DNA of 64,000 nt, from the NCBI GenBank assembly GCA_014084085.1, contig NPFB01000061.1:1-64000 (forward strand), read 5' to 3'. The stretch is from Hondaea fermentalgiana. Taxonomy: Eukaryota > Sar > Bigyra > Thraustochytrida > Thraustochytriidae. The notes beneath the pieces were generated by a model. That model worked only from the letters and a program-made list of their open reading frames with translations, did not search any database and was not told the DNA's origin. Numbering within the stretch: the stretch's first letter is position 1; each line of letters begins with the position of its first letter. Of the stretch, positions 1-59,662 are shown one piece after another. The translations under genes and the position numbers were made by a program.

Positions 1-2
1 AT

Positions 3-72
3 TCTCCTACGCGGAATCGAACCACGGTTGTCAGAGTCAGAGTCTGACATGCTGCCATTACATCACAGGAGA
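3..72 (-). tRNA. tRNA-Gln (anticodon CUG), copy 1
   Basis: Read on the minus strand this 70-nt unit folds as a cloverleaf. It has a 7-bp acceptor stem (closing pair G-U), a short D arm around AATGGCAGC, a 5-bp anticodon stem TCAGA/TCTGA with loop CTCTGAC (anticodon CTG), a 4-nt variable loop, and a T arm CGTGG/CCGCG with loop TTCGATT. The internal B box GGTTCGATTCC is a perfect match to the Pol III consensus. The D arm resembles other eukaryotic tRNA-Gln genes. It differs from copies 2 and 3 at one D-loop base (C for T). No CCA is encoded and there is no intron. Confidence 0.9.
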
Positions 73-110
73 GAGAGAAAGAAAGAAAGGTCGACGGCGA
101 ACCGCCCAGT

Positions 111-180
111 TCTCCTACGCGGAATCGAACCACGGTTGTCAGAGTCAGAGTCTGACATGCTACCATTACATCACAGGAGA
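111..180 (-). tRNA. tRNA-Gln (anticodon CUG), copy 2
   Basis: Same 70-nt cloverleaf as the downstream copy at 3-72, with anticodon CTG in a 7-nt loop, a perfect B box and a 4-nt variable loop. It is identical in sequence to the plus-strand copy at 22600-22669. The 38-bp spacer to copy 1 contains TTTC blocks on the transcribed strand but no run of four or more T, so a standard Pol III stop is not visible between the two genes. Confidence 0.9.
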
Positions 181-4616: not shown

Positions 4617-4995
4617 CCTAATTGCTTGATGACGCGATGACTCTTGTGTTTCTTGTTTTTAATCTATAGCTTATACTTTTTTGTTGTAGTCTTCCTTGCG
4701 TTGACAATAATTTGTGTATTTTAATCCTCTTTCCTTTCCTCCGGCAATTCTTTTCTCTCTTTCAGGCTCAGCACGCGGCCTCATTCGGGAAATCCCTTTT
4801 CGTTTCTCTTGCTTTCCATTTGTCAATGCTTGCTTGCTTGCTTGCTTGCTCCCCATAACGAATGACAGAATCATGCATAATATATACACGCCACAACAAT
4901 ACAGATTGATCCAACACACATTCGCTCCCACGCACGTTCGTTCACCTAGCTTGCGTTTGGGAGCGCACATGTCGCGTCGCAAGAGGGAAGAAAAG
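4617..4995. other. Convergent 3' intergenic region with TGCT repeat
   Basis: Separates the 3' ends of two convergent genes. It contains AT-rich sequence suited to polyadenylation and a (TGCT)n microsatellite at about 4827-4850. No gene is seen. Confidence 0.6.
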
Positions 4996-7677
4996 CTAAA
5001 AGAGCCCGCCAAACCACCCTGCATTCTTCTCTTCGCGCTCACGAAGCTTGCGTGCCATTGACGAAAAGTCTCCAGCATTGTTGGAGAGCGCCGCTGATGC
5101 CTCGCCAAGACGACCAAGACGTTCTCCACGCTCAATCAACGCGTCTCGAGTTTGGCCAAGCGTTTCTTGCACAGCATTCGTTTTGGCACTCGCGCCAGGG
5201 GCGCGTCGCTGCGCCATTGGCTTTTGCTCGCTCATCGGTTGGGCACCGGCCGACAAAGGCTGCGGCTGCGGTTTCTGTTGGTCGTTCTGTTGTCCCGAGG
5301 CAGACGCTGCACTCTCTTTCGCCAGCGCTCGCGCATCGTGCACGAGCATCGTGTACGTTTTGCAGAGCATATTGAAGCACGCGTTGCACACGCGCGTCTG
5401 GGAGATGCTCTGGTCGTCAAGAGAGCGCATCGAAACCGACTTGGTCGTGCACTTGGCACAGAATGTCTGCGCGCACTTGCGGCAATGCTGACGCTTGTCC
5501 AGCATCTTGAAATTCACACTGCACGAGGTGCAAGAGGAACTGTCGACAAAATCGCTTGACTTGATGGCAAAAGGAATTCGGTACGTTTGCCGTGCGGCCA
5601 CCATGCCAATGTCGGCCGGTTCAGTTCGCGAGGACCAATGCTGGACTGCGTCAGAAACATCGGCGCCAACACGCTCCAAGGCCTGCCCGATGTCGTCCAT
5701 GTCCACACGCGCGCCAAATGACACCAAAAGCTGTATGCAATCGAGGCAGTCTTCGGTCGCAACGCAATTGCCGTTTTCGCCCATTGCCACCTTTGTGCCC
5801 TCTTCGACATCCTTTACGTTTTCTTCTGCACGAGCTGACTCGAGAGACTCCACCAAGAGCCGCAACCCAGATTGCGAGCTCCCATCGGCATCTGTGCAGT
5901 GCACGTTGGGATTAGCGCCACCCAGCAAAAGCTTATTCAAAATCCCCATCATAGGCCGCGGGCTCTTGCAAACGACAAGGAGGGGCGTCAGCCCTGTATG
6001 TACCGACGTGGTCTCGGTTTTGGCCCCGATCTTCAAAAGGGAAGCAACAAGACCTCCCTGACCGCGCCGCACAGCGACGAGCAAAGCTGTATCCCCATTT
6101 ACGTCAGCAATTTCGGTTTCAGGACCAAAGCCGCCAATTGACTCTACGAAGGCGGCAGCCTGACTGGGATCCTCCGCAGACTCGCGACACGCCACAATGA
6201 GGGGAGTACGCGACTGCAAGTCCTGGGCGTCAACGTCTGCTCCGTTTTCCCAGTCGTCGCTCAAGATCATGGGCACGATGTTTGCCTGGTGCTTGAGTGC
6301 TGCGTAGTGGAGCGGCGTCATGAGATCATTATCTACGTCACTTGCCGAGGCCCCCGCGCGCAAAAGCTGGGCAGCCGTCAACGTACGACCCCCAATGCAC
6401 GCCATGTGCAGAGGAGACACCCCATTGTCGTCGCTCATGGACACTTGCTCTGGGTGCTTGGAGAGAATGCGACCTACTTCGTGGCTCAATCCCTCATGCG
6501 CTGCAGACCAAATTGTGCCACGACGGATGCCATGTTCCCAGCCGCGACTTGACGCGCGAACAGGGCGCTCACGCCGCACCGCGTCCTTGACCGCAGCGAC
6601 GACTTGCTCGATCCACATTTGCTTGTGGGGCTCGCCGCCGGCGTCGAGAACAAGTCGCGTCCCAGAGCTACCGCACAAAATCTCCAACATGGGCTGTCGC
6701 GTACTGGTCGACGAGGGCATGGCATTCTCGCCGCTCGCCAAGCCGCCTCTGCTCGAGGCCCTCTCGACACCACTTCCGTAGCTACGCAGACTGTGCCGTC
6801 CGACGCTTGCACTCCCATCATCGTCTCTGCGCCCGCCTCTGCTACTGGAGTCAGCTGTCTCGCTGTTGCGATATGTGTCGGAAAGATTGCTGTCGTCGCC
6901 TTGGTCGTCGCTGGCATCCTCATCTTCGTCCGCATCGCTGTCTTCACCAAGAACGTCGTCTTCATATACAAAGTGACTTGAAGCCATATCCCGGACACTG
7001 ACGTCGAGCAGCTCAAAGGAGGCGATGGCGGCGAGCCGGCCCGTCGTGTTCCGCATGCGAGCAAGGACGAGATAGTCATCAAAGATAAATGCCTGCAGCA
7101 TATGGTCGGCCTCGTCTTTGATCTTGCCAGCAGTAACCATGTTCACAAAGTCCCGCACTGAGCGCGCATGCACAAGCATATCGTCTGTCGCGACGCCACT
7201 GTCCCCTGAGGCTCCAAGGGCTTTGCCGACGGTCGCTCCCTTGCGCTTAATGTAGTCCCTCGTTGACGACAGGAAGCTCTTGCGGCGGTTGGCGCTGGAT
7301 CCCACGGGTTGAGCATGCGAAGAGCTCTTGGCCGTGCCCGCGGAAGCATCCGTTCCTGCACTGTCAGCGTGTCGCTGCAGGCTTCCTTTGCGGACCACTG
7401 CACCGCGCAAAAACCCGCCCTGGAAGCGGAGCTGTCGATCCGGGTTCTCGGGTAGGGCAAGATTCTTGTTTTCGAGGTCCATCATCTCCAGCACCGCGCT
7501 GGCCATTTCGCGCTGCTGCAGGCGTTCCTTTTCCTCCTCGCGAAGCTCCGATTCGGCCGCCCGCCCCTCCTCCTCCAGAAACCGCGCAAAGTCCGGGACG
7601 CCGCCGTCCTCCTCCTCCTCCAGCTGCTGCAGCTTCTGCTGCTGTTTCTCCACGCCGTCACCATCGTCGCGCTCCAT
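4996..7677 (-). CDS. PH / ankyrin / FYVE protein with C-terminal R-SNARE-like helix
   Basis: An 893-residue protein. Visible parts in order: acidic Gln-rich N-terminus; a split PH-like domain (about 165-345, ending KQMWIEQVVAAVKD) interrupted by an acidic serine-rich insert; ankyrin repeats (about 360-560, with GVSPLHMACIGGR and MTPLHYAALKHQ); and a FYVE zinc finger (about 706-769) with CTSC, the core KRQHCRKC, FCAKC and VCNAC. FYVE fingers of this type bind PI3P on endosomes. The last 60 residues contain DALIERGERLGRLGEAS and FSSMARKLR. These follow the R-SNARE heptad pattern with an Arg where the ionic zero layer lies, and no transmembrane anchor follows. This suggests a soluble SNARE regulator (tomosyn/amisyn-like) recruited to endosomes. 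The start was moved to the ATG at 7677 because the frame further upstream runs antisense to the next gene. Confidence 0.85.
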   Translation of the reverse strand: MERDDGDGVEKQQQKLQQLEEEEDGGVPDFARFLEEEGRAAESELREEEKERLQQREMASAVLEMMDLENKNLALPENPDRQLRFQGGFLRGAVVRKGSLQRHADSAGTDASAGTAKSSSHAQPVGSSANRRKSFLSSTRDYIKRKGATVGKALGASGDSGVATDDMLVHARSVRDFVNMVTAGKIKDEADHMLQAFIFDDYLVLARMRNTTGRLAAIASFELLDVSVRDMASSHFVYEDDVLGEDSDADEDEDASDDQGDDSNLSDTYRNSETADSSSRGGRRDDDGSASVGRHSLRSYGSGVERASSRGGLASGENAMPSSTSTRQPMLEILCGSSGTRLVLDAGGEPHKQMWIEQVVAAVKDAVRRERPVRASSRGWEHGIRRGTIWSAAHEGLSHEVGRILSKHPEQVSMSDDNGVSPLHMACIGGRTLTAAQLLRAGASASDVDNDLMTPLHYAALKHQANIVPMILSDDWENGADVDAQDLQSRTPLIVACRESAEDPSQAAAFVESIGGFGPETEIADVNGDTALLVAVRRGQGGLVASLLKIGAKTETTSVHTGLTPLLVVCKSPRPMMGILNKLLLGGANPNVHCTDADGSSQSGLRLLVESLESARAEENVKDVEEGTKVAMGENGNCVATEDCLDCIQLLVSFGARVDMDDIGQALERVGADVSDAVQHWSSRTEPADIGMVAARQTYRIPFAIKSSDFVDSSSCTSCSVNFKMLDKRQHCRKCAQTFCAKCTTKSVSMRSLDDQSISQTRVCNACFNMLCKTYTMLVHDARALAKESAASASGQQNDQQKPQPQPLSAGAQPMSEQKPMAQRRAPGASAKTNAVQETLGQTRDALIERGERLGRLGEASAALSNNAGDFSSMARKLREREEKNAGWFGGLF

Positions 7678-7994
7678 CTTGCTTGGTCTTCTCCGTCGCT
7701 CCACGCTGCGCGGCGCAGGCGAGCGCGCGCGTCGACCGCACACGCGAGCGCGCGATCGGCGCTTCCCCGCGCGAGCGAGCGAGGCGGCCGCGTCGGCGCG
7801 ACGGCGCGTTGGCGCGTTGGTGCCTCGAACGAAGCGGGTTTGTATGTATGAAAAGCAAAAGCAAGAGCACAAGCCGGATACTACACCTCGGAGAGCAGAG
7901 CGCCAACGTAGCGAGCGCCGCGACCTCGCCTCGGGCGCCGCGGCGAAGTCCGCTGCGTAGACAGAGCGTCGCCAAAGCGCGCGCGCGAGCGGTG

Positions 7995-8028
<34 letters not shown>

Positions 8029-8079
8029 TCTTGCGCGCGCGAGCGAGTGAAGTGAACGACAAGAGCGGCGGCCGACATC
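7678..8079. promoter_or_regulatory. Divergent promoter region with (TC)n tract
   Basis: About 400 bp between two head-to-head ATG codons. It contains a (TC)n microsatellite at about 7997-8023. A GGTGAGT just before the tract (7991) could be a 5'UTR splice donor, but no convincing acceptor was fixed. Confidence 0.4.
7997..8023. repeat. (TC)n microsatellite
   Basis: About 13 TC units shortly upstream of the plus-strand ATG at 8080. Confidence 0.9.
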
Positions 8080-9051
8080 ATGGACTTTGGCGACGACGAC
8101 GACGACTTCGTCCTCGGGAACGGCGGCGATGATGACGAGGGCGGCCTCTTGCCGATGGAGGACGAGGACGCCGAAGGGTACAACTACGACCAAGGCGACG
8201 GCGCGGGCGACTTTGGGGTCGACGGTGACCAAGGCATGTACGACCAGGGCCACCAGGGCTACGACCAGGCCTACGATGGCAGCGGCGACGTAGCCTACGA
8301 TGATGGAACGGGCCACGGGAGCCAAGGGGAACACCCTGGCGCCGCCTCAAGTAGCAGCAGCATGTACGCCGCCAACAACAATAATAACCCTGATGTGCAA
8401 GGCGTGGATCCAAACCATGCGCCAGCCCCAAACCAGGCGATTCCACCGCAACATCAGCAACAGCAACGGATGGGCGGCAAGACCCCGCAAGCTCTTGAAC
8501 AAACTCAGGCCCAAGTGCAGGCAGAAGCGCAGGCTGGTTTCATCGATTTGGCAGGACATCATGAAACCTCCCAGCAGCAGCAACACCAAGAGCAGCAGCA
8601 GGAACAAGCCAAGCAGGATCAAGAAAAGCGCCAAGCGCGGATTCAGCGCTATACATCGACGCAAACCGCACAACCCAAGGCTCCTCCCCAAGAAGATCCG
8701 AATGAGCAGAAGATTGCCGATATGAGCAAGGATGTGATTCGTCTCTACAACGAATTGGAGACCACCGCCGGAAGCCTTCTCAAGGCGTCGCTCTCTTCTG
8801 CATCGCAGTCCGGCAACGCATTGGAATCTGGCGAGGGAGCCTGCTACACCAAGCTGCTCGAGCTCAATGCAGCGTGCGACAAGCTTCGGCGACTCGCTCA
8901 GCGAAAGCTGGATATCCTGGCCGTCGAAGACGTCCTCTTGCGGCGCAACGAGCAAGAGCATCAGGAAAACCCCCAAGATGTTGTCAAAACAAAGGCAGAA
9001 AGTCTTTGCGTTTCGCGATCTGGTTTTCAAAAAGTCGTCTATCCCTGTTGA
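8080..9051 (+). CDS. Acidic, Gln-rich hypothetical protein
   Basis: 323 residues, starting at an ATG (MDFGDDDDDF). The first 90 residues are rich in Asp, Gly and Tyr, with repeated YDQG-type units (YNYDQGDGAG, MYDQGHQGYDQ). A long Gln-rich stretch (QQQQHQEQQQEQ) follows. The last 110 residues are predicted helical and charged (DMSKDVIRLYNELETTAG, LAQRKLDILAVEDVLL) and are the only part likely to fold. I recognise no family. The acidic/Tyr/Gln composition resembles intrinsically disordered nuclear or condensate-forming proteins, but that is inference. It is transcribed divergently from the FYVE/R-SNARE gene. Confidence 0.6.
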   Translation: MDFGDDDDDFVLGNGGDDDEGGLLPMEDEDAEGYNYDQGDGAGDFGVDGDQGMYDQGHQGYDQAYDGSGDVAYDDGTGHGSQGEHPGAASSSSSMYAANNNNNPDVQGVDPNHAPAPNQAIPPQHQQQQRMGGKTPQALEQTQAQVQAEAQAGFIDLAGHHETSQQQQHQEQQQEQAKQDQEKRQARIQRYTSTQTAQPKAPPQEDPNEQKIADMSKDVIRLYNELETTAGSLLKASLSSASQSGNALESGEGACYTKLLELNAACDKLRRLAQRKLDILAVEDVLLRRNEQEHQENPQDVVKTKAESLCVSRSGFQKVVYPC

Positions 9052-22599: not shown

Positions 22600-22669
22600 T
22601 CTCCTGTGATGTAATGGTAGCATGTCAGACTCTGACTCTGACAACCGTGGTTCGATTCCGCGTAGGAGA
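22600..22669 (+). tRNA. tRNA-Gln (anticodon CUG), copy 3
   Basis: Identical to the copy at 111-180, here on the plus strand: cloverleaf with anticodon CTG and a perfect B box. Its first base abuts the assembly gap, so the upstream flank is unknown. A T10 run starts six bases after the gene and is a strong Pol III stop. Confidence 0.92.
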
Positions 22670-22675
22670 ACTTGC

Positions 22676-27259: not shown

Positions 27260-29827
27260 CTACACGAGCGAAGACTGCGACGTCACCTTGAGTCGCAAGC
27301 TGTACAACATGTGGGGCTTTGTCTGTGCGGAGATGACGAGGTCAGGACGCTTGGCGCGCAGGATGGGCACAATGAGCTGTGTAAATCCCTGGCATACTTC
27401 TGGCTTCAGATTGATGATTTCGAGTTTGTTGCGCACACCCGGCTGGCTCACATCGCTCCCCGCGAGGATTGCCTTGCACCATCTGCGAAAGGTCATCACC
27501 TTGCTGCCATCGGAAGTCCAATTTGTAAATATATTCTCAATCACGGGGTCGTCCAGCCCAAAGGGAGGCGCCGGTACGTCGTCGAGCTCGTGCGGCTCGC
27601 TCCACTGTTCTCGCGACTTGTCTCGCGCACGTGATAGCTCGAGCGAGAGATCACGAATCTTAGCCTCGAGTGATGCCTCGCGGATCTTTTGCGCGTCGAT
27701 CGTTTCGCTCTCGTGAACTTGAACAGCCTCTTCTGCTGAACGTAGTTGCTCACGCGTCTTTTCTACTTCCGCCTGTAGATCTTTGGCTGCTTCTTGGGCC
27801 GTTTGTAAGGCGCTTTGTGCGGAGTCAAGCTTGTTTGTCAGATCCCCGCGATCCTTGTCCCCTTCCTCCACTTTTTGTTGAGTATCTTGGAGCTCCCTTT
27901 GCAATTCGGCAACCAGGTCCCGAATTTCTCTAGCTTGGGCCTGCGATGCCGCGAGTCTCTCGTCTGCCTCGTCGCTTGCAGTTTGCTTTGCGTCGAGCTC
28001 TCCTTGCAGTTTCGCCACTAGCGCGGCGTCATCCGCAGACGATGACTCCAGTGTCGCGACTTGCTCCTTTGCATTGTCGAGCGCTCTTTGCTTGGCCTGC
28101 AGCTCCTCCTCGAGACTCGCGACGAGGGTGTTTGTTTCCCCCAGAGACGCGCGCAAGCCTTCAAGCTCCGCATTTGAGTCCTTGAGTGCATTGGACTTGG
28201 CCTGAAGTTCCTCTTGAAGACTAGCAATCAAGGATTTGGTCTCACCAGATGAGGATTGCAAGGCAGTGAGTTTTACATTCGCTTCTTCCAGAGCAGTTTC
28301 TTTCACCTGAACTTTCTCCTGTAGACTTGCGATTAATGCTTTGCTTTCACCGGACGAAGTTCCAATGGCAGAGAGCTGTTCATGCACGGTATTGTAGGCA
28401 TTTTCTTTGGCCTGAAGTTCCTCCTGAAGACCAGCGATAAGTGATTTGGTCTCACCTGATGAGGATTGCAAGGCGGTGAGCTGCTCGTGCAAGGTGGTAT
28501 TGGCAGACTCTTTGGCCTGAAGTTCCTCTTGAAGACTCGCGACTAGTGCCTTGGTCTCACTAGACGAAGTTTCCATGGCGGTGAACTCGGCTCTTGAGTT
28601 TTCTAGAGAAGCTTCTTTTGCCTGAAGTTCCTCTTGAAGACTAGCGAGGAGAGATTTGGTCTCACCGGACGAAGATTCCATGGCAGTGAGCTGTTCCTGC
28701 ACGGCATTGTAGGCAGTCTCTTTGGCCTGAAGTTCCTCTTGAAGACTAGCGATCAATGACTTGGTCTCACCGGACGAAGATTCCATGGCAGTGAGCTGTT
28801 CCTGCACGGTATTGTAGGCAGCCTTTTTGGCCTGGAGTTCCTCCTGTAGACTCGCGATCAACGATTTGCTTTCACTCGACGATGCTTTTAATGCGGCAAC
28901 TTCCGCCTTCAAGTTATCGAGTGCCGCTTCCTTCGCTTGAAGATCCTCCTGAAGTTGAGCAGTGAGCGTCTGATGCTCGTTTGAAGTCAAGAGCGTCGAG
29001 TCTTGCAAGACGTGAAGCTTTTCCTGCAGCCCATCATTTTCCCTTTTGAAGGCATTTAGCTCTTCTTGTAGTCCTGCAACCAGTGCCTGGGTTTTTCCCA
29101 GGGCACTCGTTTTGGCTTGCAGCTCCTTCTCAAGCTCTTCTATCTTTGAGCTGCGTTCGCTGCCAGCCGACTCCACATTCGCAAGCTGAGACTTGACATC
29201 GTCAAGCGCCGTTTGCTTTTCGTCCAGATCTTGTCGAAGTTGCGCAATGAGATTTTCGTGATCCGAGGTGGCTTGTGCTGCATCTTTGTGAAAGTTGGTT
29301 TGCTGCTCGAGGTCCGCGCATTTGTGCTGTACCGTTGCGAGTTCTTCCCGTGTCTCATCGAGTGCAGACTGTTTTGCTTGTAGCTCTTCTTGCAGCTGCA
29401 CAACGAGCGCCTCGCGTTCTGCGGATGCACGCGCTTTTGTCTCGGAAAGATCCACCCTCTGATGAAGATCTTCCCGTTCACGTTTCACTGCCTGTACCTC
29501 TTCCTGGAGTTGTGCGACGAGAGCGTTTGTCTCGCCCAGCGACGACCGTGACGACTCTCGCTCTCTCTCTGCATGGTCGAGCGCGGCTTGCTTTGCCTGC
29601 AAAGCCTGCTGGAGTTGTGCAACGAGGGCTTCGTGGTCTTGGCCGCTCGCGAGCTCACTGGTCTGGCGCCTCGCAGCGTCGAGGTCCGACTCCAAGCCTT
29701 TGCTGCGGCCCTGCTCTGCCTCGAGCTGCGCCTTGAGATCGTCTCGCGTCGCCTTGCACGACGCGAGCTCCCCCTGCAGGGCCTTGAGCAGCTGCAGCAG
29801 GCGCTCCTTCGTCACGGTGGCCGCCAT
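27260..29827 (-). CDS. Long coiled-coil protein with 35-residue tandem repeats
   Basis: 855 residues. About 740 residues form one coiled coil. Its middle (about residues 270-560) consists of near-identical 35-residue units (five heptads, 105 bp) around SSSGETKSLIASLQEELQAK; flanking parts carry more diverged copies. The C-terminal 100 residues differ (LDDPVIENIFTNWTSDG, MTFRRWCKAILAG, FTQLIVPILRAKRPDLVI) and look like a small globular domain that I could not assign. The architecture of long rod plus compact C-terminal domain is that of golgins, tethers or cytoskeletal linkers. The C-terminus is not a clear GRIP domain. The first Met (MAATVTKERLLQLL) starts the heptads directly and is a convincing start. 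Confidence 0.75.
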   Translation of the reverse strand: MAATVTKERLLQLLKALQGELASCKATRDDLKAQLEAEQGRSKGLESDLDAARRQTSELASGQDHEALVAQLQQALQAKQAALDHAERERESSRSSLGETNALVAQLQEEVQAVKREREDLHQRVDLSETKARASAEREALVVQLQEELQAKQSALDETREELATVQHKCADLEQQTNFHKDAAQATSDHENLIAQLRQDLDEKQTALDDVKSQLANVESAGSERSSKIEELEKELQAKTSALGKTQALVAGLQEELNAFKRENDGLQEKLHVLQDSTLLTSNEHQTLTAQLQEDLQAKEAALDNLKAEVAALKASSSESKSLIASLQEELQAKKAAYNTVQEQLTAMESSSGETKSLIASLQEELQAKETAYNAVQEQLTAMESSSGETKSLLASLQEELQAKEASLENSRAEFTAMETSSSETKALVASLQEELQAKESANTTLHEQLTALQSSSGETKSLIAGLQEELQAKENAYNTVHEQLSAIGTSSGESKALIASLQEKVQVKETALEEANVKLTALQSSSGETKSLIASLQEELQAKSNALKDSNAELEGLRASLGETNTLVASLEEELQAKQRALDNAKEQVATLESSSADDAALVAKLQGELDAKQTASDEADERLAASQAQAREIRDLVAELQRELQDTQQKVEEGDKDRGDLTNKLDSAQSALQTAQEAAKDLQAEVEKTREQLRSAEEAVQVHESETIDAQKIREASLEAKIRDLSLELSRARDKSREQWSEPHELDDVPAPPFGLDDPVIENIFTNWTSDGSKVMTFRRWCKAILAGSDVSQPGVRNKLEIINLKPEVCQGFTQLIVPILRAKRPDLVISAQTKPHMLYSLRLKVTSQSSLV
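28195..28960. repeat. 105-bp tandem repeats inside coiled-coil gene
   Basis: Blocks containing CCTGAAGTTCCTCTTGAAGA recur at 105-bp steps, clearest at about 28512, 28617 and 28722, with neighbours before and after. Several adjacent units differ by only a few bases. Confidence 0.85.
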
Positions 29828-36263: not shown

Positions 36264-37577
36264 TTATAGCCAGTCGCCGTTTTTGATTTTCTCTGGAAGG
36301 TACTTTTGCGTAAGGAACTGGAAACCAAAGGTTGACAGAGCCTGGATTTCGGCTTTCTTTTTTGACTTGAGCATCAGCTTGAGCTCCCTGACCCACCCGG
36401 GGTTCTTTTTGATGAAATCCTCTTGCAGGAGCTGTTCGCCCGTTTTCCTATCATTATCCGTAAGTTCAAGACGGCATTCTGCTGGGATCTTGTATCGATC
36501 GAGGTCAGAAGGCCTCACGCCTAACCACTTGATGTCTGGGCAAGTGAGCGAGTTCGAGTCATATGACATGTTCTTGGAGCCGCTCATGTATACGGAAAGA
36601 ATCTTGAGGCCGTACGGATCGCTGTCCACCAGCGCAAGAACAGGGATGCGTAGCTCGGTGCGCAAGCGTTTGAGAAACATGCGACTGGCCACGTCGGGCT
36701 GTCCGCGCGCCGTGATGATGATGCACTTCATGCGTTGGTAGAATCTGTCCTCGGAAAGGCGCATGAAAGCAGCATCTTTTTCCACGAGAAGAATGAACTC
36801 CGCACTGGAACGAATGTCCGTGACACGATCAATCATGGGGGGAATGCCCTTGCCACCGATGCCGAGGCGCGAGCAGTCAATTTCATCACCATCCTCCTTG
36901 AAATTCAAATTCCCAACAACGACACCTTTTTCGGAGGCCACAACATTGAGACTGGTTCGCGTGCAGCCGAGCATGACAGAGATATCGTCGAGAATCCGGT
37001 CTGTCTGCAACTGCTCAACGAAAAGCTTTACATCGGTGTAAAAGAGGTCACGCTTCGTAATATGGATACCACGCTGCAGGATACTGTGGATGAGCTGGAT
37101 CATGCGCGTAATGATTGTGGTTCGACGTACAGTCTGCGCGTTGGCAAACTTGAGTTCCTTGAACTTATCCGCCTTTAGCACAATACGATCTAGCTCCTTG
37201 ATGTACAACTGGCTGCCCTCGCCACGGCTTGGGATCTTAAAGGTGAACCCCTTGCCATCAATGACGCTTTTGAGCAGGTCAACAACCATTCTTTCAATAC
37301 GAGCAGCGACGTTGTCCTCTGTCATGACCTTGACCTCCATCACGTTCTCGGTCAGGTCGAGATCCTCGAGGCCTACCGCCTCCTTCTCCATGTGCGTGTC
37401 AAGGTCCTTGCGCAGGTCCTGCAACTTGGTCAGCGACCCATCGCCCGCCGTGCGCGCGCGTTTGCCGCCCGAAGAGGCCGATAGCGCTGCGGAAGAGGAA
37501 CGAACGTCCAGACCATCTTCGTCCTCGTTGCTGCTGTCCGCCAGCGCCGCGACGCTGCGCTTGCCAGCGCGCGACAT
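36264..37577 (-). CDS. DNA topoisomerase VI subunit A (SPO11-3/RHL2 type)
   Basis: 437 residues. Topoisomerase VI passes one DNA duplex through another. In plants the A subunit (SPO11-3/RHL2/BIN5) with subunit B supports endoreduplication, whereas true SPO11 makes meiotic breaks. The active-site segment is [13 protein letters not shown] with catalytic Tyr180. The Toprim part has [11 protein letters not shown] and [12 protein letters not shown] (DxD metal site). [40 protein letters not shown] and KAEIQALS match the plant topo VI A sequence far better than meiotic SPO11. The first 65 residues are acidic and variable. The start is the first ATG. No subunit B is in this window. It is divergent from the TBC gene. 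Confidence 0.95.
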
Positions 37578-38149: not shown

Positions 38150-40651
38150 ATGGACGAAGAGGAGGAGGACGAGGACTTTCTCCAGCTGCTGGAGGAGGTC
38201 GGCCTACCGAAAGATGCCTTTGGTGGGAAACGCGACGAGAGAGCCGACGACCTCATCGCGGACGACGACCCCGTCCTCGACTTTCTCAAAGAGACAGAGG
38301 ACACTGACGACGTCGAGAATGCAGGACGAGACGGGCGTCACGGGACTGTCAAGGTCGAGGCTGAAGAGGACGAAGAGGAGGGTCTTGTAAGCCCCAAAAC
38401 TTCGGAGATCGAAGCTGCCGCGGAGACGGGATCTCGAAGAAATCACAAGGATCCATCTGGCAGCAAAATATACCAAGGCCAGCATGACAATGCTGCCAAA
38501 GACGACGATAACGACGACGACGATGACTTCCTTGACTGGCTCGTCGACGACAAAGGTCGCAGCCCGCAGGGCAAGCATCACCTTGACGCGCACCGCCTTG
38601 TTCACGAAGCTGAAGCAAGTCATGGGGGAGATCCCGAAGAGGAATCAGATCTTCTTGCACGACTCAAGGACGCACTCGAAAGAGAAGATTCTGGCGAGAA
38701 TGCGCAGCAAATTCTGCATCTGTGCAAACGTCTTGGGCGCATTCCCGCCAAATATCGTGCCGAAATTTGGTGCAAACTTCTCCATACAAGTGAAGACGTC
38801 CATGCGTCTTCGCGTCAGCATGGGCGGGGCCAGCAACCCTCCCGCGAGGACGAGGAAAGTGTCCTTAAGGCAATGGCAGAAAGTGCAGTCCTGAGACATG
38901 CTAATCTTGCAGAAGAACAACGCAAACTCGGCGATTGCGAGAACCCGAGCGAAGTTCTGCGCGAAGCCGACGATCTCTTTGTCGAGGTACAAATGCATAC
39001 GCGCGTCGTGGTGCGTGCCTTTGATGTTGAGATATCTCTTTGCGACCCCGGCATCGCAGACGTCGTTCATGTGCTTGCCTCGCCCGCTCTGAAACTTTCC
39101 CCCTTCGAGGTCGCTCCCCTCATGCAAGAGCTGCGTCGCAAGCGCGTGCTTCTCCTGCAATTTCCAGACGATGACACAGTCGTGCCAAGCATTTTGCAAA
39201 AACGTGCAAAGCTTCTCGAGCTTGTCCTTCGTCTACACGCTCCGGATCTTGCCGAGCGAGTTTTCAGCTTCGGTCCGCCTCAAGTGGTAATCCCCTGGCG
39301 CTGGTGGCGATGCGCTTTTGCTGGCGAAGTCGTTACGACCTCGCTGCTGACGATTTGGGATCTCTTGATTGTTGACGCCTGTCCAGAGACGAACGGGGAT
39401 CATGGTCCGTCGCACGCCTCGCCACTCACGGGGGTCTGGGAAGGTTGCGATCCGCGCGGCCCTCTCGCAGTCTACATGATGATTGCTCTTCTCGTCAAGT
39501 GCAAAGATGCACTCATGTCTAATGAAGACACGAAAATTATCGAATGCCAAGCGACTGACAATCCGAATCGAGCAAAAGCAACCGAGGACTCGCCTCAGCA
39601 CTTTCTTGCAGTTCTACGCGCTGCCGTCGCGCGCATTCCCGCAGGCGAAGCAATGCAGCTTTGTGATGAGGCCAAAATATTGCGTGCCTCCACACCGCTC
39701 GACGTCATCGAGGAGGCTTTTCAGGATCACGCAGTGTCTCAAACAGAGCCGCCCCCCGAGAACGTCTTTAACTCAGAGCCGCGCTCGACGTCTTCTTTGC
39801 AGACGGGCATGCGTAACACACTTCAAGATGGAATGGCGTCCATGTTGGGCGGTTGGCTTCGATCCACTGAAAATTCCAAGTCTGTGCCGAATGTCACGCG
39901 TATGGGTTCGTCTGCTTCTTCTTCTTCTTCTTCTTCTGGGTCCCGATCCTGGTCCAATGCGATGAAGCTCACGCTTGGACTTGGCGGTCTCTCTGCTGAG
40001 ACATTGGAACGTGAAAAGACGCTTCGTGACGAGCACACGAAAACGCAAACGTCACTTGCGGAAAAACACTTCCAAGTGGTCGATGCCGACGCGCCAAAAC
40101 CGTTTGATCAAGAGCTTGTCAAACCGCAACGCGCATCAGAAAACGCAGCCGCTGCTGAAACAACAGCCAAAGATCTCACCAACCTGTTACCCTCAAACGC
40201 TGCGCAGGCTAAACATGAACTTAGCGGGCTCACAAAAGGCGCACTGCTGACACTTAGCATTCTCAGACCCCTCGATACGAGCGAGTGGACGCTCTTGCCA
40301 ATACAAATGGAGACAAACTCTGGCTTTCTCATCCTCGCGCACTACCGTCTTGTTTTTCTAGAGGCGTCGGATGGCAAATCCCTTCCAATGCCCCAAGATC
40401 TAGCGTCTCAGAGTCAGCTCGCTCTGCTTGGGGATTATGAATCTTGTACTCTCACAGTCCTGGATGCCTTTCATGTGTCGGAGCTTTCACATCTCATCAT
40501 CGGAGGGACGACTTCGAAAGACTTGCGAGATATCATGGTGCGCTTTCATCATCCAGAGCTTCGATTCATCAGAACTTTTCAAGTCTTCAACACTCGAGCA
40601 ACTTCTCTTGGGGACCAGCTGCACACCATGATTCAAGAGCTCTTTCTGTGA
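38150..40651 (+). CDS. TBC1D23-like protein with C-terminal PH/GRAM-like domain
   Basis: 833 residues from the ATG giving MDEEEEDEDFLQLL. An acidic disordered N-terminus (1-160) is followed by a divergent TBC domain (about 164-460). Its visible landmarks are LGRIPAKYRAEIWCKLL, LVLRLHAPDLAERVF, PWRWWRCAFAG and GPLAVYMMIALLVKCKDALM. The spacing resembles TBC1D23, a Golgi tether whose TBC domain is catalytically dead, and I likewise see no IxxDxxR arginine finger. A serine-rich linker (poly-Ser at 39921-39938) precedes a C-terminal beta-rich domain (about 697-833) with GFLILAHYRLVFLEAS and LRFIRTFQVFN. That domain looks like a PH/GRAM fold. Rhodanese homology was not found. A role in endosome-to-Golgi traffic is inferred. 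Confidence 0.65.
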   Translation: MDEEEEDEDFLQLLEEVGLPKDAFGGKRDERADDLIADDDPVLDFLKETEDTDDVENAGRDGRHGTVKVEAEEDEEEGLVSPKTSEIEAAAETGSRRNHKDPSGSKIYQGQHDNAAKDDDNDDDDDFLDWLVDDKGRSPQGKHHLDAHRLVHEAEASHGGDPEEESDLLARLKDALEREDSGENAQQILHLCKRLGRIPAKYRAEIWCKLLHTSEDVHASSRQHGRGQQPSREDEESVLKAMAESAVLRHANLAEEQRKLGDCENPSEVLREADDLFVEVQMHTRVVVRAFDVEISLCDPGIADVVHVLASPALKLSPFEVAPLMQELRRKRVLLLQFPDDDTVVPSILQKRAKLLELVLRLHAPDLAERVFSFGPPQVVIPWRWWRCAFAGEVVTTSLLTIWDLLIVDACPETNGDHGPSHASPLTGVWEGCDPRGPLAVYMMIALLVKCKDALMSNEDTKIIECQATDNPNRAKATEDSPQHFLAVLRAAVARIPAGEAMQLCDEAKILRASTPLDVIEEAFQDHAVSQTEPPPENVFNSEPRSTSSLQTGMRNTLQDGMASMLGGWLRSTENSKSVPNVTRMGSSASSSSSSSGSRSWSNAMKLTLGLGGLSAETLEREKTLRDEHTKTQTSLAEKHFQVVDADAPKPFDQELVKPQRASENAAAAETTAKDLTNLLPSNAAQAKHELSGLTKGALLTLSILRPLDTSEWTLLPIQMETNSGFLILAHYRLVFLEASDGKSLPMPQDLASQSQLALLGDYESCTLTVLDAFHVSELSHLIIGGTTSKDLRDIMVRFHHPELRFIRTFQVFNTRATSLGDQLHTMIQELFL

Positions 40652-57350: not shown

Positions 57351-59662
57351 ATGTCGGGCACAGCAGCGTCAGTTTTGTCGTCGCTCGCCGATGGAGGTCC
57401 CGACGTGCCTCTGCAGCAGCCGCCAGACCTGAGCCAGGCCGAGGTGGACTTGCAGAGCGTGCTCGAGGTGGCTCGTGAGGGCTTGTTTGCTGTCGTCGAC
57501 GCCTGTCAAGTAAGTTTCCAGCACGGCGAAGGCCCATCCAGTCGAACGAGGTGGGGTTTTCTTTGACACTCACGACCCTATGGGGGGGCGTCTCTTTTCT
57601 TTTTTTCTTTTCGCAGGGCGACAAGTGCCTCGTTTTCGACCCAAGTGTGGCTGGGCCGCTCAAGCTCGTGCTCGTCGAGGGCTCAAATAAGCTGCGAGAG
57701 CACGGCGTCGTGAATGTGGAGGAGCTAAATTGGACCGACCTCGAAGTCGCCTGCGACAATATCATCTACATTGTTCGGCCAGAGGCCAAGATGGCGCATC
57801 AAATTGCATCACAAGTCTCACAGAGCGGACACAAGTACAAGTTTCAGATCCACTTTGTTCCAAAGCGCTCATTTCTGTGTGACCAGATCTTGCGCGATCA
57901 CGGCGTCTTTGATGTACTGAAAAACAACATGTACGAGTATCCCCTGGGCTTCATTCCGTACGACACGGATGTGCTCTCCCTTGGACTTGAATCCTCCTTT
58001 GCGCAAGTGAATCTACAAAAGGATGACTCAACGCTCATGTACGCCGCGCGTGCACTCTTGCAGCTGCAGGACACGCTCGGGCCCGTGCGGAACATTCAGG
58101 TCAAGGGGGACCAGAGCAAAAAGGTGCTCGACATGGTCCTTCGCATGCGTCTCGAGGCCGAAGAAGAGCTTGCTACGCGGACGCTCGATCGAGAAATGGG
58201 CAGTCTCTCTGCCGAGGAGGACGATGACGACGATTCGGAATTTGACGAGGCCGAGACGGACGAAAGCGGCGATGGAGGACCGCGCCGTGGGGCCGCGCGG
58301 GGACTCAATATGGACAGCCTTTTTGCCGAGGTGGAACGCCTCGGACCGAATGCTAGCGCGCAGGATCTCGAAGACGTTCTCAAGAGCGACATCGACTTTG
58401 CAACCAAGCGTGTGGCCGCGCAAGAAGGAAGCAGCATCGGACAGATCGACACGCTCTTGCTCATCGACCGCAACCTTGACCTTGTTACACCCATGTGCAC
58501 GGCGCTCACGTACGAGTCAATCATCGACAAGCTAATGGGCATTCGGAATGGACACGTTATGCTTGACGCCGATTTGATAGACCCAGCGACTGCGGCAAAC
58601 TCTGCGGCAGCTGCACGACCCGGGGCAAGGCAGCAGCAGTTAAGCGGAACTGCAGGTGGAGGCGGCGGCCGACGGCCTGCCAAACTGTCCATGTCACTGA
58701 ACTCCGCGGACCGCATCTACCGCGAGATCCGAGACATGAACGTCGATGTGGTAATGGTGTTTCTGAACAAGCGTGCTCGCGAGATGCATGATCGCTGGCA
58801 AGACACCAAGGCTGGCAAGGTGGAGGAGCTTCACAAGTACGTGCATACCAGCCTACTCGACCACGTCCAAGACAGTCAGCTGCTTCCTCGGCACATCAGC
58901 ATCGTCAATCGTATTCGCGATACCGTGTACGACTTGCCCTTTCGCAAAATGTGGATGGTGGAGCGCGAGATGCTCGAAGGGAGCAATCACACAAAGTACA
59001 TTGAAGAATGTATTGCGCGGCAAGAACCGTGGACAAAGGTGCTTCGTCTTGCATGCTTACAATCGCTCGTGCTCAATGGATTCTCGCAGAGCGCTCTCGA
59101 CGCGCTGCGGCGAAGCATCGTTCAGACCTACGGCTTTGAGTTGCTCTTCACCTTGGAGAATCTCGAAAAGCTTGGCATGCTTAAAAAACGTGGGGCTTCG
59201 AGTGCCTGGTCGTCGCTTGTGTCGACCTTTCGACTCATTCCCCCTTCTGTGAATGCAAACGAGGCCGAGCCCGATGACATCGCCTACGTCACGTCTGGGT
59301 ATGCACCATTGAGCGTCCGTCTTGTGGAGTTGGCGATTCGTCCGGGTTGGGAAAAGTCCAAGGATGTGATGAAACGTTTGCCAGGTCGAACAATTTACAA
59401 GGTCAAGCAGCCCGGTGTTCGTCTTCTACCCGAAAATTCGGGCGCCACGTCAGAATCTGCAGGCGCGCCGAAGCCCCCCAAAAAGGTCATGCTCGTGTTT
59501 TTCACAGGTGGCGTGACCTTTGCTGAGATCGCTGCGCTTCGCTTCGTTTCGCAGCAAGCGGATTGCCCATATCGTCTCGTGATTGCGTCGACGGCATTTG
59601 TGAATGGCAAGACCTTCTTGCAGTCTCTTGTGCACGACGTGGAGAACAATTTGCAGAGGTAG
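57351..59662 (+). CDS. VPS33: VPS33 Sec1/Munc18-family protein (two exons)
   Basis: 734 residues from join(57351..57509, 57617..59662). VPS33 is the SM subunit of HOPS/CORVET, clamping SNAREs for endosome and vacuole fusion. Exon 1 (53 codons) ends VVDACQ. A 107-bp intron with GTAAGT donor and a pyrimidine-rich TTTTCGCAG acceptor follows, and exon 2 resumes GDKCLVFDPSVAGPLKL in phase 0. Family blocks are FVPKRSLLC-like VPKRSFLCDQIL, YPLGFIPYDTDVLSL, DTLLLIDRNLDLVTPM, LPRHISIVNRI, and the diagnostic VFFTGGVTFAEIAALRF with VNGKTFLQSL at the end. An acidic insert (about 220-250) and a Gly/Gln insert (near 355) are not typical. Exon 1 matches the VPS33 N-terminal helix in position. Confidence 0.94.
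57510..57616 (+). other. Spliceosomal intron in VPS33
   Basis: 107 bp, GTAAGT donor and a T-rich tract before CAG acceptor. Splicing joins two frames into a complete SM-protein N-terminus; without it the upstream helix is lost. Confidence 0.9.

What the first reader, a model, noticed from the sequence alone, without database searches (positions are those of the whole stretch)
4996..7677. PH-ankyrin-FYVE protein ending in an R-SNARE-like helix
The sequence shows a FYVE finger (KRQHCRKC core) and ankyrin repeats. The final 60 residues have SNARE-type heptads and an Arg at the zero-layer position (LIERGERL), with no membrane anchor. Soluble R-SNARE ends are known in tomosyn and amisyn, and amisyn also has a PH domain. 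I know of no described protein that joins PH, ankyrin, FYVE and an R-SNARE. It could place a SNARE-complex inhibitor on PI3P endosomes.
Basis: partly seen in the sequence, partly recalled or inferred. Interest (0 to 1): 0.75.

Follow-up and report, generated by a model that had tools for sequence, protein, structure and literature searches.

The report
Soluble R-SNARE fused to FYVE protein
A protist protein that carries lipid-binding-type (PH-like and FYVE) and ankyrin-repeat parts ends in a genuine-looking membrane-fusion (R-SNARE) helix but has no membrane anchor, so it may be brought to internal membranes by lipids and there control, rather than carry out, vesicle fusion.

Summary
The reading holds in its main point. 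Window 4996-7677 (minus) is an uninterrupted 893-residue gene: PH-like domain split by an acidic insert, ankyrin repeats, divergent FYVE finger, C-terminal R-SNARE motif, aromatic tail, stop. The 72-residue tail alone passes Pfam's Synaptobrevin cut-off (29.5 bits, E 6.6e-7). On a profile of this genome's five stronger R-SNAREs it scores 29.5 bits; the best shuffle 9.6. The one full-length relative found (P0002, 57% identical) ends alike; the SNARE tail is its best-conserved stretch, layers -3 to +8 identical 12 of 12. No anchor is encoded.

Corrections: the whole-protein score just misses the cut-off; layers -7 to -5 do not fit; FYVE lacks WxxD and reads KRQHCR, so PI3P binding is unproven; PH is weakly supported.

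Best reading: an anchor-free regulatory R-SNARE, working like tomosyn or amisyn, in a new architecture. Whether it blocks fusion or helps it (Vam7-like) is not settled here. A 2010 survey lists SNARE with PX, not with FYVE. Organism not identified.

The parts
4996..7677 (-). whole coding region, 893 aa, uninterrupted, ATG 7677 to TAG 4998-4996
   Evidence: first Met of the open frame; relative P0002 begins ME and ends WFGGLF likewise
7471..7590 (-). N-terminal predicted helix, residues 30-69, partly conserved
   Evidence: (very low-confidence model)
6949..7197 (-). PH-like domain, first part (residues 161-243), 58 of 83 identical to P0002
6694..6948 (-). acidic/Ser-rich insert inside the PH-like domain (residues 244-328), 26 of 85 identical
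6562..6693 (-). PH-like domain, second part with C-terminal helix (residues 329-372), 25 of 44 identical
5863..6507 (-). ankyrin repeats (residues 391-605), 147 of 215 identical to P0002
5365..5544 (-). FYVE finger (residues 712-771): 8 Cys, KRQHCR, RVC; no WxxD
5191..5361 (-). linker between FYVE and SNARE (residues 773-829); its 791-825 keeps 11 of 35
5035..5190 (-). R-SNARE motif (residues 830-881), zero-layer Arg850 in ERGERL
4999..5040 (-). conserved C-terminal tail (residues 880-893) ending WFGGLF, no transmembrane segment; 12 of 14 identical

Best explanation
A peripheral (anchor-free) regulatory R-SNARE. Shown by sequence: ankyrin array, divergent FYVE finger, a poorly conserved linker and a C-terminal R-SNARE motif with zero-layer Arg and no membrane anchor, all kept in one relative from another source; a split PH-like domain is weakly supported. 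Inferred: PH-like and FYVE modules, perhaps with an ankyrin-bound partner such as a Rab, bring the protein to endosomal or vacuolar membranes; the loose linker lets the R-SNARE helix enter the R position of a Qabc acceptor complex there; having no membrane anchor it cannot pull two bilayers together, so it holds the acceptor complex and sets how much is free for the genuine R-SNAREs (tomosyn/amisyn-like clamp). The partly hydrophobic WFGGLF tail may dip into the membrane where a VAMP would have its anchor. That the motif is a real R-SNARE motif I hold at about 0.93; that the protein acts through Q-SNARE binding as a soluble R-SNARE at about 0.75; that the net effect is inhibitory at about 0.5.
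For: Profile scores; own-genome R-SNARE profile with shuffle and window controls; ungapped PDB matches to VAMP4 (E 1.9e-4) and tomosyn (E 3.7e-3), with 8 of 12 and 9 of 14 covered layers identical; the tail is the best-conserved 54-residue stretch between P0001 and P0002 (46 of 54) while linker 791-825 keeps 11 of 35; layers -3 to +8 identical 12 of 12; the frame stops directly after WFGGLF and P0002 ends there too; of the genome's five stronger R-SNARE hits four end in a hydrophobic stretch and one (Ykt6-like, my label) in CCTIC, unlike this protein; possible partners exist in the genome: 5 PF05739 hits (frames not read) and a 106-residue frame that looks Vti1-like (my label). [quoted passage not shown]
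Against: Whole-protein Synaptobrevin scores are under Pfam's cut-off in both proteins (23.9 and 24.6 against 26.4). Layers -7 to -5 do not fit and P0002 has Pro at -6, so the helix may be shorter than a canonical SNARE. The full-length AF2 model is useless (mean pLDDT 34.9). FYVE lacks WxxD and has Q for the first His. Only one relative was found. No test of binding or location.
Confidence: 0.6

Rival explanations
1. Vam7-like, fusion-supporting peripheral SNARE: phosphoinositide-recruited, it supplies the R helix of productive complexes or bridges a PI-rich membrane to a Q-SNARE membrane.
For: Vam7 is a precedent for an anchor-free SNARE held by a PI3P-binding domain (PMC2639358 passages); lipid-binding-type modules plus a conserved WFGGLF tail could replace an anchor (inference).
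Against: Vam7 is not an R-SNARE (recalled: Qc); for anchor-free R-SNAREs the passages seen say non-fusogenic. A 57-residue, poorly conserved linker separates FYVE from the SNARE helix.
Confidence: 0.22
2. Not a SNARE: an ordinary C-terminal coiled coil for dimerising a FYVE protein, resembling an R-SNARE by chance.
For: FYVE proteins often dimerise (recalled); whole-protein score misses Pfam's cut-off; N-terminal layers do not fit.
Against: Best of 8,430 scored shuffles 9.6 bits against 29.5; best of 2,817 other windows 5.9; Arg at the zero layer and A/F/A at layers +5 to +7 as in VAMP2; conserved in the relative.
Confidence: 0.07
3. Alternatively spliced, membrane-anchored form: a splice near the end of the gene joins the SNARE motif to a downstream hydrophobic stretch (window 4919-4851, minus), giving a tail-anchored R-SNARE.
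For: A 23-residue hydrophobic stretch begins 79 bases past the first base of the stop codon in another frame; of 21 in-frame GT-AG joins listed, one has donor GTGAGC, a 97-base intron and keeps all layers to +8.
Against: Such hydrophobicity occurs in 536 of 79,066 six-frame 23-mers of the window and 21 joins are possible, so coincidence is likely; P0002 keeps the WFGGLF end; the product would carry 59 further residues.
Confidence: 0.05
4. Self-inhibited switch: the ankyrin array folds back on its own R-SNARE helix (as the ankyrin-repeat protein VARP clamps VAMP7) and releases it on the right membrane.
For: VARP binds VAMP7 in its closed form and blocks SNARE assembly (PMC4059916 passages). Compatible with the best explanation rather than exclusive.
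Against: No evidence here; [quoted passage not shown]
Confidence: 0.06

Closest known systems
Tomosyn (STXBP5; Sro7/77 branch)
   Same: C-terminal R-SNARE motif of the RG type after a large cytosolic body, no membrane anchor; ungapped match over 48 residues, 17 identical
   Different: The yeast homologue's body is two beta-propellers (PMC2639358 passage); here PH-like, ankyrin and FYVE, no WD40 match
Amisyn (STXBP6)
   Same: PH-type domain before an anchor-free R-SNARE motif (amisyn's PH: finding and recall; anchor-free)
   Different: Amisyn is small and has neither ankyrin repeats nor FYVE (recalled); no direct sequence comparison made
Vam7 (fungal SNARE with PX)
   Same: Anchor-free SNARE coupled to a PI3P-binding module
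   Different: PX not FYVE; Q not R (recalled); no ankyrin repeats
FYVE endosomal effectors: ANKFY1/Rabankyrin-5, Phafins, EEA1
   Same: Ank+FYVE, PH+FYVE, or FYVE plus contact with endosomal SNAREs (Phafin: start of abstract; others recalled)
   Different: None carries its own SNARE motif, to my knowledge
VAMP4 and VAMP7-like / Sec22-like R-SNAREs
   Same: RG-type R-SNARE motif; VAMP4 is the best PDB match (E 1.9e-4); L004 and L001 of the own genome give the best local alignments of five (names are my labels)
   Different: These have another N-terminus and a membrane anchor

Membership tests
R-SNARE motif (Synaptobrevin PF00957) | profile score over curated cut-off | tested here: met
   tail alone 29.5 bits and six-frame search 27.8 bits against 26.4; whole protein 23.9 and P0002 24.6 are just under
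R-SNARE motif (Synaptobrevin PF00957) | Arg at the zero layer | tested here: met
   R850, same in P0002
R-SNARE motif (Synaptobrevin PF00957) | 16 heptad layers -7 to +8 | tested here: inconclusive
   -4 to +8 fit; -7 to -5 are A, A, T (S, P, A in P0002)
Fusogenic R-SNARE (VAMP/longin) | C-terminal transmembrane segment or lipid anchor | tested here: not met
   ends WFGGLF-stop, no C-terminal Cys; most hydrophobic 19-mer of the protein is 638-656, mean 1.17, far from the end
Fusogenic R-SNARE (longin) | N-terminal longin domain | tested here: not met
   no such Pfam match at E<=10
Tomosyn (R.Reg) | anchor-free C-terminal R-SNARE motif | tested here: met
Tomosyn (R.Reg) | WD40/Lgl beta-propeller body | tested here: not met
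   no WD40 or Lgl match in P0001 or P0002 at E<=10
Amisyn | PH domain N-terminal to the R-SNARE motif | tested here: inconclusive
   PH-like by weak profile and weak model matches; amisyn itself not compared
Regulatory R-SNARE | binds Q-SNARE acceptor complexes | not testable with these tools
   no complex prediction offered
FYVE, PI3P-binding | eight Zn-binding Cys | tested here: met
   C716, 719, 732, 735, 740, 743, 764, 767; same spacing in P0002
FYVE, PI3P-binding | WxxD motif | tested here: not met
   absent in both proteins
FYVE, PI3P-binding | R(R/K)HHCR motif | tested here: inconclusive
   reads KRQHCR in both
FYVE, PI3P-binding | RVC motif | tested here: met
   RVC in both
PH domain | profile score and fold | tested here: inconclusive
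Vam7 | PX domain and a Q-SNARE motif | tested here: not met
   no PX match at E<=10; Arg at zero layer

The most novel reading that the evidence does not exclude
A separate, lineage-restricted kind of anchor-free R-SNARE in which FYVE, PH-like and ankyrin modules replace tomosyn's propellers, making SNARE availability directly dependent on the phosphoinositide (and perhaps Rab) state of the membrane; possibly this lineage's stand-in for tomosyn, since among the 10 places that the genome search lists at E<=10 no other anchor-free frame is over the Synaptobrevin cut-off (frames of the other nine printed; one weak, anchor-free coiled coil, L033, E 0.099, was set aside; exon-split genes could be missed).
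Probability: 0.4. Interest if true: 0.75.

Novelty: new variant of a known kind. Interest (0 to 1): 0.6.

Why it matters
Tomosyn and amisyn are the anchor-free R-SNAREs I know of, and Vam7 the known SNARE with a PI3P-binding module. A FYVE-R-SNARE fusion would show that coupling SNARE assembly to phosphoinositides in one polypeptide arose more than once, and gives a single, testable protein for the question whether anchor-free R-SNAREs act as clamps or as helpers at endosomes.

Tried and rejected
Chance coiled coil: rejected by shuffles and windows. Q-SNARE: no PF05739 match to the tail at E<=10. NCBIfam gave 13 matches (7 in P0001, 6 in P0002), 10-48.7 bits against cut-offs of 500-1400, mostly models of bacterial ankyrin effectors and all lying in the ankyrin region; ignored. 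Full-length AF2 uninformative; Foldseek on the PH model gave nothing at E<=0.001. phmmer of the PH segment against PDB: 0 matches at E<=10. Relatives: three protein searches gave one true relative, P0002 (one search scored only the 7,990 candidates sharing most words; its other 34 hits all list ankyrin domains and cover 9-28% of the query; I scanned two of the 34, P0021 and P0034). One viral-contig scan: 101 pattern matches, none confirmed. A second copy of the tail in the genome: none, but the first look passed only one candidate, the gene itself, so this search is insensitive. Lgl_C (tomosyn body) not found in the genome; the search had no positive control. L033, an 806-residue frame with a weak Synaptobrevin match (17.5 bits, E 0.099), looks like a coiled coil and was set aside. 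No R-SNARE tree was attempted: about 50 columns would not resolve it. Organism not identified: an unnamed 36.0 Mb, 238-contig assembly, eukaryotic by gene content (inference). In one search the frames of L002, L005, L031, L032 and L033 were read on the wrong strand; one search corrects this.

Full report
Observation. The open frame 4996-7677 on the minus strand encodes 893 residues without interruption. The frame stays open upstream of ATG 7677 but holds no further Met and runs across the start of the divergent neighbour, whose ATG is at 8080. Pfam finds ankyrin repeats (from 392), FYVE 712-771 and Synaptobrevin 831-880. The Synaptobrevin score is 23.9 bits for the whole protein, 2.5 under the cut-off; the last 72 residues alone score 29.5, over it.

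Is the SNARE real? Five lines agree. (1) Pfam E 6.6e-7 for the tail, with no other family at E<=10. (2) phmmer against PDB lists 16 sequences at E<=10; 15 are R-SNAREs by name (VAMP4 first at E 1.9e-4, tomosyn second at 3.7e-3, none of the others under 0.04) and one, a kinetochore subunit at E 1.4, is not. (3) A profile from five R-SNARE motifs of the genome itself scores the tail at 29.5 bits and that of P0002 at 29.7 (23.6 and 24.3 for the whole proteins); the best of 10,000 shuffles (8,430 with a reported score) is 9.6 and the best of 2,817 other windows 5.9. (4) Layers -3 to +8 read L T L R L L S L A F A L, identical in P0002 (12 of 12; 21 of 27 non-layer positions between). (5) The best-conserved 54-residue window of the P0001/P0002 alignment starts at 839/840, 46 of 54 identical, with part of the PH-like region close behind (45 of 54), against 11 of 35 in linker 791-825. 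Against: layers -7 to -5 are A, A, T (S, P, A in P0002), so the N-terminal part of the helix is not canonical.

No anchor. The frame stops right after WFGGLF, and P0002 ends at the same residues (the DNA behind P0002 was not seen). Of the genome's five stronger R-SNARE hits, L001-L004 end in a long hydrophobic stretch and the Ykt6-like L005 (my label) ends CCTIC. A hydrophobic stretch lies downstream in another frame at 4919-4851; it could be reached by hypothetical splices (21 GT-AG joins), but 536 of 79,066 six-frame 23-mers in the window are as hydrophobic, and the conserved end speaks against it.

FYVE. Eight Cys and RVC are there; WxxD is not, and the basic motif reads KRQHCR in both proteins. 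In an alignment of the genome's 18 FYVE hits, 14 have the Trp (L024 only partly matched) and 4 do not, this one among them. PMC3017826 (passages) names the Asp of WxxD and the second His of HHCR as the residues implicated in excluding other phosphoinositides; the second His is kept here, the Asp is not. PMC8233823 (passages) describes an oomycete FYVE domain that also lacks WxxD. PI3P binding is therefore possible, not shown.

Relatives. One full-length relative in about 5.8 billion proteins at this tool's word-sharing sensitivity: P0002, 975 residues, E 1.2e-284. Searches with the tail alone (384 candidates, E<=1) and with FYVE plus tail (2,235 candidates, E<=0.01) returned the same protein only. 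In the own genome, of 10 places listed at E<=10 for Synaptobrevin, six are over the cut-off, this gene the weakest of them; of the other five, four carry a hydrophobic anchor and one the CCTIC end. So the protein is rare, fast-evolving or poorly sampled outside its lineage.

Mechanism. From the anatomy: membrane recruitment by PH-like and FYVE modules (inferred), partner binding by ankyrin repeats (inferred), a loose linker (shown poorly conserved), and an R-SNARE helix without anchor (shown). From papers: tomosyn (PMC2639358 and PMC6143360, passages) and amisyn (PMC6143360) lack an anchor, cannot be fusogenic and control access to Q-SNARE acceptors; Vam7 shows that a SNARE may be held by a PI3P-binding domain. 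I favour the clamp; the Vam7-like alternative is open.

Novelty. A 2010 survey of FYVE and PX architectures (PMC2837644, section 8 with Table 1 read) lists PH and Ank with FYVE, and SNARE with PX but not with FYVE. Paper searches combining R-SNARE or SNARE motif with FYVE, ankyrin, tomosyn, amisyn, PH domain, protist or thraustochytrid terms gave listings with no such protein (listings show 15 of 28 and 10 of 562 papers); the library holds open-licence papers only. On this evidence it is a new variant of the anchor-free regulatory R-SNARE.

Noticed in passing
window 4851-4919 (minus): Hydrophobic 23-residue stretch in another frame shortly after the stop codon; a spliced tail anchor is conceivable but probably chance.
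   Followed up: partly
L002 and L003 (own genome C19, C236): Two of the five stronger R-SNARE-like proteins have Asn, not Arg, at the zero-layer column when aligned with L001/L004.
   Followed up: no
L034 (own genome C188:104997-105074): Frame resembling VAMP7 (my label) whose SNARE motif looks interrupted or degenerate before a C-terminal hydrophobic anchor; may be an unspliced intron.
   Followed up: no
window 57791-59662 (+): Sec1/Munc18-family gene (PF00995 E 1.4e-76), about 50 kb from the R-SNARE gene.
   Followed up: no
window 38150-40651 (+): Marginal Rab-GAP TBC match (E 9.9e-6, 25.8 bits against 25.2) in an 833-residue frame.
   Followed up: no
window 28197-28882: 105-base (35-residue) tandem repeats, also 315-base period, inside the frame 27260-29827, which matches several coiled-coil models.
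   Followed up: no
window 36264-37577 (-): Spo11/topoisomerase VI A gene (PF21180 E 1.5e-68).
   Followed up: no
window 7678-8079: 402-base divergent intergenic region with a TC run at 7997-8031, shared with the 323-residue frame 8080-9051, which has only a weak TFIIA match (E 0.03).
   Followed up: no
window 2-72, 110-180 (-), 22600-22670 (+): Three tRNA genes; two have the same score and may be copies.
   Followed up: no
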